The position numbers were made by a program, and so were the translations under genes. Below are positions 1 through 23,054 of a stretch of DNA of 23,054 nucleotides, piece by piece; positions within the stretch are counted from its first letter, which is position 1; each line of letters starts with the position of its first letter. The notes below the pieces were generated by a model. That model did not search any database and had not been told where the DNA came from. It worked only from the letters and a program-made list of their open reading frames with translations. The stretch is from the IMG/VR virus record IMGVR_UViG_3300023294_000102, positions 1 through 23,054 of that record. The stretch is one strand, 5' to 3'. The DNA is from a virus.

Positions 1-22
1 TACTAGTATCTCCTGATACACA
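1..22 (-). other. Start of an intein inserted at the NrdA radical cysteine
   Basis: From codon 438 (TGT at 22..20) the NrdA homology stops and reads C-V-S-G-D-T-S, the usual start of intein block A (Cys1 followed by a small-residue/GDT stretch). The insertion falls between the residues equivalent to E. coli L438 and C439, so the catalytic Cys would be the +1 residue after splicing. Only seven residues are visible, so class, length and any endonuclease are unknown. Confidence 0.75.
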
Positions 23-1333
23 AAGGTTTGACATATAAACTTTATCTTTAAATGAACTGTGAGTATTACAATGGTCAATATTCATAATGTAAATACGACC
101 TGTTTCTGCTCTTTCTTTTAATAAATCCATAAACAAAGTTTGTGCTCTTATTTTCTTTTTACTGATAGATGTTTTTCTTTCATACTTCTCATATAACTCA
201 TCAAACTCTGGCATACCAAATGCTTCGTATAAGTCTTTACATTCATGTGGTGAGAATAAAGTAATTTCTTCATCTCTAATAAATCTTTCATAGAATAGTT
301 TAGATATTTGTATAGAATAGTCTAACTTTCGTACTCTATTATCTTCTGACCCTTTATTGTTTTTTAAGACTAATATATCTTCTATTTCTTGATGCCAAAT
401 TGGAAAGTGAACTGTAGCTGACCCCCCTCTAACTCCGTTTTGGGTGCAACATCTAACTGTTGCTTCAAACTTTTTAAGGAAAGGAATAACACCAGTATGT
501 TGGATTTCTCCACCACGAATCCTTGAATTAATTCCTCTAATTCTTCCAGCATTGATTCCGATGCCCGCCCTTTGGGCAACATAGTTACCAATAGCCATAT
601 CGGAGCTAAAAATACTAGGAAGAGTATCATCACTATCAACCAGAACGCAAGACGCAAACTGTCTAAGAGGAGTACGAACACCTGCCATAACAGGTGTAGG
701 AATGTTGATCTTGAATTTACTAATGGCGTCATAGTATTTTTTAACATATTGTAATCTACTTTCTTTTGGGTATTCAGCAAATAATGTTGCTGATATCATC
801 ATATACATAAATTGAGGTGTTTCAAAAATATCACCTGTACTTCTGTCTTGTACAAGGTACTTATCCATAACTTGTCTTATACCTGCATAGGTAAAATTAT
901 AATCTCGTTCATGCTCAATCCACATATTCATTCTATCAATTTCAGATTCAGTATAATTGGTTAATATTGCTTTATCATACACACCCTCATCAACACATTT
1001 TTTGATGTGGTCTAAAAATTTAGGATGTTCCCATAGTCTATGAAATAATTTTTTTCTTAGAGAGAATAATAATAATCGAGCTGCGACAAACTGATAGTTA
1101 GGACTTTCTAAACTTATTAAGTCATTAGCAGACTTAATCAAAATCTGTTGTATATCCTCTGTATTAATACCATCAAAGAATTGTATACCACTATTCATTT
1201 CTACATGAGAAGCACTAACACCTGTAATACCCTCTGTTGCATACCCAACCATTGAATGAATTTTATCAATGTTTAATGATTCTTTTCCCTTATCTCCACG
1301 CTTAGTTACATACAAGTTCGATTCTGTTACCAT
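1..1333 (-). CDS. nrdA: Ribonucleotide reductase class I alpha subunit, N-terminal part, running into an intein
   Basis: NrdA reduces ribonucleoside diphosphates to deoxyribonucleotides in the cytoplasm, supplying phage replication. An uninterrupted frame of 444 codons runs off the left edge. Recognisable class Ia segments are TPVMAGVRTPLRQFASCVL (C229 matches E. coli C225), QRAGIGINAGRIR, IRGGEIQHTG, VLKNNKGSEDNRVR, and GRIYIMNIDHCNTHS leading to SNLC. E. coli continues NLC-LEI at its thiyl-radical Cys439; here the reading is NLC-VSGDTS, which is not NrdA sequence but matches an intein block A. The ATG at 1333 directly follows the primase stop, and AGAAGG in the primase 3' end serves as ribosome binding site. 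I am sure of the family; the intein is inferred from its first seven residues. Confidence 0.95.
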   Translation of the reverse strand, partial: MVTESNLYVTKRGDKGKESLNIDKIHSMVGYATEGITGVSASHVEMNSGIQFFDGINTEDIQQILIKSANDLISLESPNYQFVAARLLLFSLRKKLFHRLWEHPKFLDHIKKCVDEGVYDKAILTNYTESEIDRMNMWIEHERDYNFTYAGIRQVMDKYLVQDRSTGDIFETPQFMYMMISATLFAEYPKESRLQYVKKYYDAISKFKINIPTPVMAGVRTPLRQFASCVLVDSDDTLPSIFSSDMAIGNYVAQRAGIGINAGRIRGINSRIRGGEIQHTGVIPFLKKFEATVRCCTQNGVRGGSATVHFPIWHQEIEDILVLKNNKGSEDNRVRKLDYSIQISKLFYERFIRDEEITLFSPHECKDLYEAFGMPEFDELYEKYERKTSISKKKIRAQTLFMDLLKERAETGRIYIMNIDHCNTHSSFKDKVYMSNLCVSGDTS

Positions 1334-21438: not shown

Positions 21439-21957
21439 TTAGGACTCGTTGTTTTGTGTGGTTGAGGTTTCTTCTGTGTCAATTACTTCTCCATATTTAA
21501 ATTCTTTAGCACAAACAGCATCCAATTGTTCTAATATTTCTGGTGTGAAATACTTTTCAGGATTATTGTTTATTGTTTTACCAAAGGTCTTAGTACCATC
21601 TGGCAATTCAACTCTCGTAGATACTGATTTGAATATGTTATATTTTAATGCTAAATCTAAAAGTCCATAATATCTGTCTAGACCTTTATCATAAGTTAAT
21701 CTGACATCTACTACTTTATTTTCTTTTGTTAATCTGGATTTGTAATTTTTACAATGAATAATATTACCAATAACTTCTGTTCCGTCTTTTTCTTTTCTCT
21801 TAGATAGATATACGATTGATGACGCTGCATATTTCAATCCTGAATTATGTGTAATAACACCATTTTCTAAAATATAATTTTCATGTTTATCCACGCTAAT
21901 ATCAAAAACTTTATTTTTACCTGCAGGTTTTATAGATTTTACTTTAATTGTTTTCAT
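21439..21957 (-). CDS. uvsX: C-terminal half of UvsX recombinase preceded by a C-terminal split-intein fragment
   Basis: 172 aa in one frame. The first 38 residues are an intein C-fragment (block [14 protein letters not shown], block G NGVITHN). Residue 39 (Ser, +1) begins Uvs[18 protein letters not shown], then KSRLTKENK and [16 protein letters not shown], which align with T4 UvsX (RecA-like strand-exchange protein for recombination-dependent replication) after the L2 loop. It starts at its own ATG, which overlaps the endonuclease stop (ATGA), with AAAGGA upstream. Only trans-splicing with the upstream N-half product could give a whole UvsX. There is no other uvsX copy in this window. The acidic, Thr/Glu-rich tail after about residue 155 resembles the UvsX C-terminal tail. 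Confidence 0.92.
21844..21957 (-). other. Intein C-terminal fragment (IntC) of split UvsX intein
   Basis: 38 residues including the start Met. Splicing block F ([14 protein letters not shown]) and block G (ENGVITHN) are intact, with the penultimate His and terminal Asn needed for Asn cyclisation and Ser as +1 nucleophile. The length is close to that of known fast natural split-intein C-fragments (about 37 aa for gp41-1). Confidence 0.92.
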
Positions 21958-22679
21958 AACTTAACTATCCTTTCAATTTTTTTAATTTCATATTTATCAA
22001 GTAAATGAAAATTGTTTGGTTTACATAGTTTACTTCCTAAGTAACGTGACATATTTAAATGATCTCCGAGGTCTCCATATTCCTCAAATGTTTTTATTTT
22101 ATTATTTTTAAAAAAAACTTTAATTGGCTGAACCCTCAATCCTCTCATCTTTTTTTTAAATTCCTCAGTATGAGTTTTTCCATAGAATGGATTTTTATCC
22201 CCTAAAGTACCTTTAGAAATATTATTTTTCCAAGTTTGTTTTTCTTCTTCATTCATATTATAATAACAAGGTTTTCCATACATTGGATTATTTTTACCTT
22301 TTATTAAATATCCTTTACCATAAAAGGGATTATTTTCACCAGATATTTCTTTAGCTGCTGTTTTTCTATACTTCTCGTATAATTTTGAGTTAATTGAATC
22401 ATATCTTCCTCCCTTTTTTTTACTATTTGATCTTCTCATGCCAAAATAAGCAAATGCCATAGATTTTTTTTGATTACCTGTTGTCATTTTTAATAATAGA
22501 AGATGGCATAAAAAATGTTGTCGTGCTGTAAGATACGTCAAATTAGATTCACTATTAGCACCTCCAATGGATTTTGGAATTATATGATGTCTTTCATAAT
22601 ACCCATGGTTTGGTTTATTTTTAAAGCCTGAATTAATCATTTTAAAATAAGTTTTAGTATATTTGTTATTTAAGAACAT
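21954..22679 (-). CDS. HNH homing endonuclease with NUMOD3 repeats, lying within the broken uvsX gene
   Basis: 241 aa. The HNH nuclease is N-terminal: [11 protein letters not shown] (H31, H32), SNLTYLT (N46) and H55. Three NUMOD3-type DNA-binding repeats follow: NNPFYGK (116), NNPMYGK (131) and KNPFYGK (162, followed by [12 protein letters not shown]). The C-terminal [19 protein letters not shown] may be a helix-turn-helix element. Such enzymes nick or cut intein/intron-less alleles and drive copying of their own gene. It is a separate frame with its own ATG, AGGAG site and late box TATAAATA (22704..22697), and its stop overlaps the IntC start. It therefore sits between the two intein halves as a free-standing gene, not fused to either. 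Target site is inferred to be uninterrupted uvsX. Confidence 0.9.
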
Positions 22680-22696
22680 AAGGTTTCTCCTAATTC

Positions 22697-22704
22697 TATT
22701 TATA
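22697..22704 (-). promoter_or_regulatory. Late promoter TATAAATA for the homing endonuclease
   Basis: Perfect T4-type late box in the 27-nt gap between the IntN stop and the HNH start; AGGAG and the ATG at 22679 follow. T4 free-standing homing endonuclease genes are also often under late promoters. Confidence 0.7.
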
Positions 22705-22706
22705 CT

Positions 22707-23054
22707 TTATATCACCTCTACCAAGTCGTTTTCAGCAATATCTTTAGCTTCTACCCATTGTTTATTAATATAAAACTTGTGTTCTGGTGTACATTTTACT
22801 TTATCTCCATTCTCAAATTCAATTTCAAGTATGTCTTTATTATCAAATGTATGTGTTTGAAGCACCTCTTTAAACTCACCCTCTTTAGTAAATACCTCAT
22901 CTCCTGATGAAATAGTTTCAATTGCTCTATAACCATCACGAGTTAAAATATTAGTTCCAGCAACAAGGCATCCACCACCCATTTCTTTCTGTGGGAACAT
23001 AGAACCAATAACATCATATGTATGATTAGTAATAATCAAAGGCACTTTTGCCTT
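22707..23054 (-). CDS. uvsX: N-terminal part of UvsX (partial) ending in a split-intein N-fragment
   Basis: The frame enters from the right edge, so the gene start, Walker A and Walker B lie outside. Visible extein: [19 protein letters not shown] then FPQKEMGGG, aligning with T4 UvsX (INHTIETIEMF...GG) and E. coli RecA (INQI...MFG...TTGG). At Cys (22970..22968) the extein stops and 87 residues of intein N-fragment follow, ending in a TAA at 22707. The extein of the second half resumes directly at SGLKYAAS in the gene at 21957-21439. The break lies at the end of the RecA L2 DNA-binding loop. Without splicing the protein would be inactive. Confidence 0.92.
22710..22970 (-). other. Intein N-terminal fragment (IntN) of split UvsX intein
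   Basis: 87 residues starting [20 protein letters not shown] then SSGDEVFT (block A, nucleophile Cys1), with block B in [14 protein letters not shown] (Thr-x-x-His), ending [12 protein letters not shown]-stop. With the 38-aa IntC it totals 125 residues, mini-intein size. No endonuclease or linker residues remain fused. Length and break point match natural split inteins such as gp41-1 (88 + 37). Confidence 0.93.

What the first reader, a model, noticed from the sequence alone, without database searches (positions are those of the whole stretch)
21439..23054. uvsX is a fractured gene: split intein halves flank a free-standing HNH/NUMOD3 endonuclease gene
The sequence shows UvsX-N + IntN (87 aa) ending in a stop, then an independent HNH gene, then IntC (38 aa) + UvsX-C in a new frame with its own start. 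Exteins rejoin exactly across the break (GGG | SGLKYAAS). All splicing residues are present: Cys1, TxxH in block B, His-Asn at the end and Ser +1. Such fractured genes are known from marine viral metagenomes for other genes (gp41, nrdA/nrdJ, IMPDH), often with a Vsr-like endonuclease. Here the host gene is the RecA-like recombinase and the inserted enzyme is a different family. UvsX works in homing repair itself, so the element sits in a gene its own mobility may need.
Basis: partly seen in the sequence, partly recalled or inferred. Interest (0 to 1): 0.92.

Follow-up and report, generated by a model that had tools for sequence, protein, structure and literature searches.

The report
Phage recombinase split by mobile intein
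In this virus of bacteria the gene for a DNA-repair protein (UvsX) is cut in two by a mobile element, and the two protein halves carry the parts needed to find each other and join; near-identical viruses without the element, and laboratory-grown relatives of phage T4 with it, show that it moves between viruses, although the joining itself has not been tested.

Summary
The end of the contig encodes UvsX-N plus an 87-aa split-intein N half, a separate HNH/NUMOD3 endonuclease gene, and a 38-aa intein C half plus UvsX-C, with all class 1 splicing residues present. Two results go beyond the finding. (1) The element moved into this phage. Contig L002 is the same phage without it: joined UvsX is 97% identical with no gaps, and 28 of 29 differences lie within -130 to +8 of the insertion point. 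That tract matches another phage lineage (98.5%); in the window it runs on to +32. This is a gene-conversion footprint as expected from homing. (2) It is no rarity: the same site is occupied in about 60 IMG/VR contigs and at least 19 cultured T4-like phages, annotated only as recombination proteins and homing endonucleases. The endonuclease there is GIY-YIG-like; elsewhere HNH, unassigned, degenerate or missing. In one lineage an exact endonuclease deletion fused the halves into a contiguous intein. The fractured-gene architecture is known (Dassa 2009, which I could not open), so this is a new member of a known kind, unusually well documented and testable in phages of E. coli K-12. Trans-splicing and DNA cleavage remain inferred.

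The parts
22971..23054 (-). UvsX N-extein, last 28 residues ([28 protein letters not shown]); contig ends here
   Evidence: the rest of UvsX-N in L082
22710..22970 (-). IntN, split-intein N half, 87 aa, Cys1 and block B TPEH; stop codon at 22707-22709
   Evidence: Intein_splicing 2e-8; gp41-1 intein 1.6e-5, NrdJ-1 8.8e-3
21954..22679 (-). free-standing HNH homing-endonuclease-like gene with NUMOD3 motifs, 241 aa; AGGAG upstream
   Evidence: phrog_655 homing endonuclease 2.7e-37; I-HmuI best structural match, low-confidence model
21844..21957 (-). IntC, split-intein C half, 38 aa, ends His-Asn; ATG overlaps the HNH stop (ATGA)
   Evidence: (Intein_splicing 7e-7)
21439..21843 (-). UvsX C-extein, 134 aa plus stop, +1 residue Ser
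21811..21843 (-). right part of the gene-conversion tract (+0 to +32 from the insertion point)
   Evidence: 100% to the L045/L050 lineage, 64% to L002
22971..23054 (-). left part of the gene-conversion tract within the window (in L082 it reaches -130)
   Evidence: tract 98.5% to L047, 82% to L002

Best explanation
This is a fractured uvsX gene carrying a mobile split-intein element. Three proteins are made from one operon: UvsX-N-IntN, the HNH endonuclease, and IntC-UvsX-C (started by translational coupling at ATGA). The intein halves associate, splice by the class 1 route (Cys1 thioester, attack by Ser+1, Asn cyclisation) and release intact UvsX (inferred). The endonuclease cuts uvsX alleles that lack the element near the codon junction GG(G)|S/T at the end of DNA-binding loop L2 (inferred). 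Repair of the cut on an occupied copy transfers IntN, endonuclease gene and IntC together with a short stretch of flanking uvsX. Transfer of the whole unit with co-converted flanks is shown by sequence comparison; cutting and splicing are inferred.
For: Anatomy. Splicing residues invariant in 49 of 49 inteins at this site: Cys1, [TSC]xxH, HN, GG at -2/-1, +1 Ser or Thr. Model of a naturally contiguous relative (L109, mean pLDDT 77) matches the gp41-1 intein first, TM 0.72/0.78. Empty allele L002: 1056/1056 nt aligned without gaps, 97.25%, downstream 2982 bp identical; 28 of 29 mismatches between -130 and +8, 0 of 20,000 shuffles as clustered; the tract is 98.5% to the L047 lineage, its surroundings 100% to L002. 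Element far younger than its host genes: L082/L085 exteins dS 1.1-1.2, IntN and HNH dS 0.08; CF-SP2/UFV01/Lion_ER11 exteins dS 1.0-1.4, element dS at most 0.05. Exteins and both intein halves evolve under purifying selection (dN/dS mostly 0.02-0.2).
Against: No splicing or cleavage assay. IntC dS between L082 and L085 (0.27, 38 codons) is higher than in the rest of the element. A tract around the insertion is expected for any recombination that transfers the element, so the tract shows gene conversion but not by itself an endonuclease cut. The HNH model is of low confidence (mean pLDDT 68).
Confidence: 0.88

Rival explanations
1. The element moves by ordinary homologous recombination between co-infecting phages; the endonuclease is inactive or targets another site, so there is no true homing.
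For: T4-like phages recombine heavily; the CF-SP2 exchange is one-sided and long to the right. Several relatives keep only remnants of the endonuclease or none (TG1 and VmeM-32).
Against: Whole unit repeatedly much younger than the flanks in unrelated phages; endonuclease genes themselves under purifying selection (dN/dS 0.07-0.09 for BYEP01/HY03 and SEA1/CF-SP2); HNH catalytic positions invariant in 16 aligned relatives; short two-sided tract with different right ends in two sister genomes.
Confidence: 0.2
2. The UvsX halves work without splicing, by non-covalent assembly, as shown for the split NrdA of phage Aeh1; the intein sequences are relics.
For: Such assembly is documented for NrdA of Aeh1 and DNA polymerase of phage 25 (PMC2988022).
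Against: To my knowledge those cases lack inteins; here every splicing residue is conserved in 49 of 49 inteins across about 40% identity, and intein halves have low dN/dS. The break lies at the edge of loop L2.
Confidence: 0.06
3. The split is a recoding or sequencing artefact of an ordinary contiguous intein with an internal endonuclease domain.
For: Contiguous inteins exist at the same site (SCTP-2, L141).
Against: The same stop/start layout in contigs 50-99% identical and in complete cultured genomes; ribosome-binding motifs before both downstream genes; an HNH gene lies on the opposite strand between the halves of a neighbouring UvsX intein in L109.
Confidence: 0.02

Closest known systems
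Fractured genes with split inteins from marine viral metagenomes (Dassa et al. 2009; gp41, NrdA, NrdJ, IMPDH)
   Same: Conserved phage DNA-metabolism gene broken by a split intein with a free-standing endonuclease gene between the halves; best structural match is the gp41-1 intein.
   Different: Host gene uvsX and endonuclease HNH/NUMOD3 rather than Vsr-like. I could not open the paper; from memory it lists eight kinds of DNA synthesis and repair genes, so uvsX may already be among them.
Fractured uvsX of cultured T4-like phages (BYEP01, ELT1, SYGD1, HY03, SEA1, CF-SP2, Lion_ER11, UFV01, PM2, Pm5461, PspYZU05, TG1, Thanatos-1, VmeM-32, EniLVp02)
   Same: Same codon junction, same three-part layout, homologous intein halves (IntC plus start of UvsX-C 42-53% identical).
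   Different: IntN mostly 96 aa and IntC 35 aa, +1 Thr, GIY-YIG-like endonuclease, mostly with NUMOD3; not annotated as inteins except one 'HintC' note.
T4 Mob/Seg free-standing homing endonucleases
   Same: HNH or GIY-YIG free-standing nucleases; SegA of T4 sits beside and cuts uvsX (PMC2988022).
   Different: Those lie between genes and cut a distant site; here the gene sits inside the split intein.
Salicola phage SCTP-2 RecA/UvsX contiguous mini-intein
   Same: Same insertion site GG|C ... HN|SG; IntN 42% identical.
   Different: Contiguous, no endonuclease; a second intein in the P-loop.

Membership tests
Fractured gene with split intein (Dassa 2009) | conserved gene broken into two ORFs, N part fused to IntN and C part to IntC | tested here: met
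Fractured gene with split intein (Dassa 2009) | free-standing endonuclease gene between the intein halves | tested here: met
   HNH + NUMOD3, own start, ATGA overlap with IntC
Fractured gene with split intein (Dassa 2009) | exteins join to the intact protein at a precise codon junction | tested here: met
   empty allele L002 aligned without gaps; Lion_ER11 versus pzk-kv19, no gap columns in 4176
Fractured gene with split intein (Dassa 2009) | Vsr-like endonuclease (from memory reported in about half of the loci; not required) | tested here: not met
   HNH/NUMOD3
Class 1 split intein | Cys/Ser1, block B TxxH, C-terminal His-Asn, +1 Cys/Ser/Thr | tested here: met
   window sequence; 49 of 49 relatives
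Class 1 split intein | HINT fold | tested here: met
   by homology and by the model of contiguous relative L109; the window's own halves were not modelled
Class 1 split intein | protein trans-splicing | not testable with these tools
   needs co-expression
HNH homing endonuclease | HNH motif with conserved catalytic His/Asn | tested here: met
   HHIIP, N46, H55 invariant in 16 relatives; Pfam HNH just above its cut-off
HNH homing endonuclease | cuts alleles lacking the element | not testable with these tools
   indirect only: gene-conversion tract

The most novel reading that the evidence does not exclude
The L2 site of UvsX holds a long-lived split intein that acts as a docking place for successive endonucleases: HNH, GIY-YIG and other types have replaced one another inside it (PM2 versus Pm5461: exteins and inteins nearly identical, endonucleases 35% identical), have decayed, and were once deleted so that the halves fused again (L109). 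Because strand invasion by UvsX is used in homing repair, a donor phage must splice the element's own host protein before the element can spread efficiently, tying its mobility to its splicing.
Probability: 0.35. Interest if true: 0.78.

Novelty: new member of a known kind. Interest (0 to 1): 0.62.

Why it matters
It gives a natural series at a single codon junction: empty, occupied with an intact endonuclease of different families, endonuclease in decay, split without endonuclease, and contiguous again. That makes the origin and reversal of split inteins directly testable, with cultured phages whose records name E. coli K-12 as host. It adds an apparently new family of natural split inteins for protein engineering, and it corrects annotation: databases list the two halves as separate 'DNA repair protein' and 'recombinase' families.

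Tried and rejected
Assembly error: rejected (many contigs and complete genomes). Intact second uvsX: not seen in the complete cultured genomes (one UvsX place per record); cannot be tested in this incomplete contig, G000 being a 23-kb record. RNA structure between IntN and HNH: nothing beyond shuffles, z 0.13. Promoters or terminators inside the element of the window: no clear excess over shuffles. Pfam scan of the Lak and L129 endonucleases: no convincing family; a Vsr-like type is only my impression. Literature: searches combining uvsX with split intein or fractured genes found no paper describing this, but Dassa 2009 is not held.

Full report
What is there. The last 1.6 kb of the window, minus strand, encode three ORFs: the end of UvsX fused to an 87-aa intein N half; a 241-aa HNH/NUMOD3 protein; and a 38-aa intein C half fused to the last 134 residues of UvsX. 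The HNH gene starts 27 nt after the IntN stop behind an AGGAG motif, and IntC starts inside the HNH stop codon (ATGA) behind AAAGGA, so three separate proteins are expected from one transcript. All class 1 splicing residues are present. The window is a whole IMG/VR record of 23,054 bp; the missing part of UvsX-N is supplied by L082, the same phage from another contig (99.8% identical over the 4.6-kb overlap).

Insertion site. The contig L002 carries an intact uvsX. The joined exteins of L082 align to it over 1056 nt without a gap. The junction [11 protein letters not shown] aligns to TTGG|NALKFYAS of E. coli RecA, the end of DNA-binding loop L2 (position of L2 from general knowledge). UvsX in two unjoined pieces would be expected to be inactive (inference).

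Movement. L002 and L082 are the same phage outside a short stretch: downstream 2,982 bp are identical, and 28 of the 29 mismatches in uvsX lie between -130 and +8 from the insertion point (0 of 20,000 shuffles as clustered). In that stretch the occupied allele is 98.5% identical to another phage lineage (L047) and only 82% to L002, while the surroundings are 100% (left) and 99.4% (right) L002 but only about 80-83% L047. In the window the converted stretch runs to +32 and matches L045, L050 and relatives at 100%; in L082 it stops at +8. So the element came from a phage of that lineage with co-conversion of its flanks, and tract ends differ between sister genomes. This is the footprint expected of homing by repair, although any recombination that delivers the element would also leave donor sequence beside it. 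Independent cases agree: L082/L085 exteins differ at dS 1.1-1.2 but IntN and HNH at 0.08; Salmonella phage CF-SP2, Enterobacter phage UFV01 and Klebsiella phage Lion_ER11 share a 99-100% identical element in uvsX genes that differ at dS 1.0-1.4; L155 and L085 share an identical IntN in different uvsX genes. CF-SP2 changes from almost identical to about 80-88% identical to the empty phage STML-198 at -31.

How widespread. One degenerate DNA pattern for the junction found 70 IMG/VR contigs, of which 61 encode UvsX upstream by BLAST and three more evidently do (some are redundant). In the phage collection, 25 records of 19 named phages carry the intein C half joined to UvsX-C at this site; I inspected 14 and each has UvsX-N-IntN, an endonuclease gene or its remnant, and IntC-UvsX-C. 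They are annotated as recombination proteins and homing endonucleases; PHROGs holds the halves as separate families. Prevotella Lak phages have a fractured UvsX at the same site under code 15, with a 469-codon ORF in between.

Turnover of the endonuclease. The window and most metagenomic relatives have HNH/NUMOD3; cultured phages and L121, L123, L135 have GIY-YIG-like genes; L129 and Lak have types that match no Pfam family convincingly. The GIY-YIG assignment of most cultured genes rests on the N-terminal YYIG motif and PHROGs; Pfam supports it directly only for Thanatos-1 and weakly for L123. On the intein tree, classes are interspersed (many forks are weak). Sister phages PM2 and Pm5461 have nearly identical exteins and intein halves but endonucleases only 35% identical, direct evidence for exchange inside the intein. 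TG1, VmeM-32, L125, L127 and L139 hold remnants; L120 and L136 have none. L109 is contiguous, identical to split L113 for 269 nt, then lacks exactly 661 nt containing the endonuclease: a split intein turned back into a contiguous one.

Fold. The model of the L109 contiguous intein (mean pLDDT 77) has the gp41-1 split intein as closest solved structure (TM 0.72/0.78). The HNH model is weak (mean pLDDT 68); its best match is the HNH homing endonuclease I-HmuI over 100 columns (E 0.03, probability 0.98).

Verdict. The architecture is that of the fractured genes of Dassa et al. 2009, so I file it as a new member of a known kind; whether uvsX was among the genes of that paper I could not check. The added value lies in the empty-allele comparison, the presence in culturable phages, the endonuclease turnover and the re-fusion. 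Trans-splicing, endonuclease cutting and the dependence of homing on spliced UvsX are inferred; the last rests on UvsX/RecA being used in T4 intron homing (PMC2988022).

Noticed in passing
window 1-1333 (-) and L179:10260-12939: A second fractured gene in the same phage: nrdA ends at the contig edge with the first residues of an intein (SNL|CVSGDTS); L179 (99.7% identical over 11.6 kb) continues it as NrdA-IntN, a GIY-YIG endonuclease gene (Pfam 4e-11) and IntC-NrdA.
   Followed up: yes
L109 and L128, minus strand: UvsX with two inteins 11 residues apart: the first split (VIG|C ... HN|S) with an HNH gene on the opposite strand between its halves, the second contiguous.
   Followed up: partly
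L113:9270-9340 (+): A hairpin followed by T-rich sequence (GGTTCTGGACT...AGTCCAGAACCTTGTTTTT) just after the IntN stop, terminator-like; not seen in the window.
   Followed up: no
L088:3933-4100, L090:4114-4296, L092:4179-4364: A small ORF of 55-61 aa with a YY-rich tail between endonuclease and IntC in several cultured phages; no Pfam match for the two scanned.
   Followed up: no
L135:7204-7709 versus L121:2651-3496: The same GIY-YIG-like endonuclease intact in L121 and broken into two frames in L135: decay in progress.
   Followed up: partly
L100:5325-6704, also L090:4913-6261: A 459-aa gene annotated as homing endonuclease directly after uvsX-C in Proteus phages, with weak MTES_1575 nuclease and Mom-like matches.
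   Followed up: no
L093:1903-3873 (Salicola phage SCTP-2): RecA/UvsX with two contiguous mini-inteins, one in the P-loop, one at the same L2 site as the window.
   Followed up: partly
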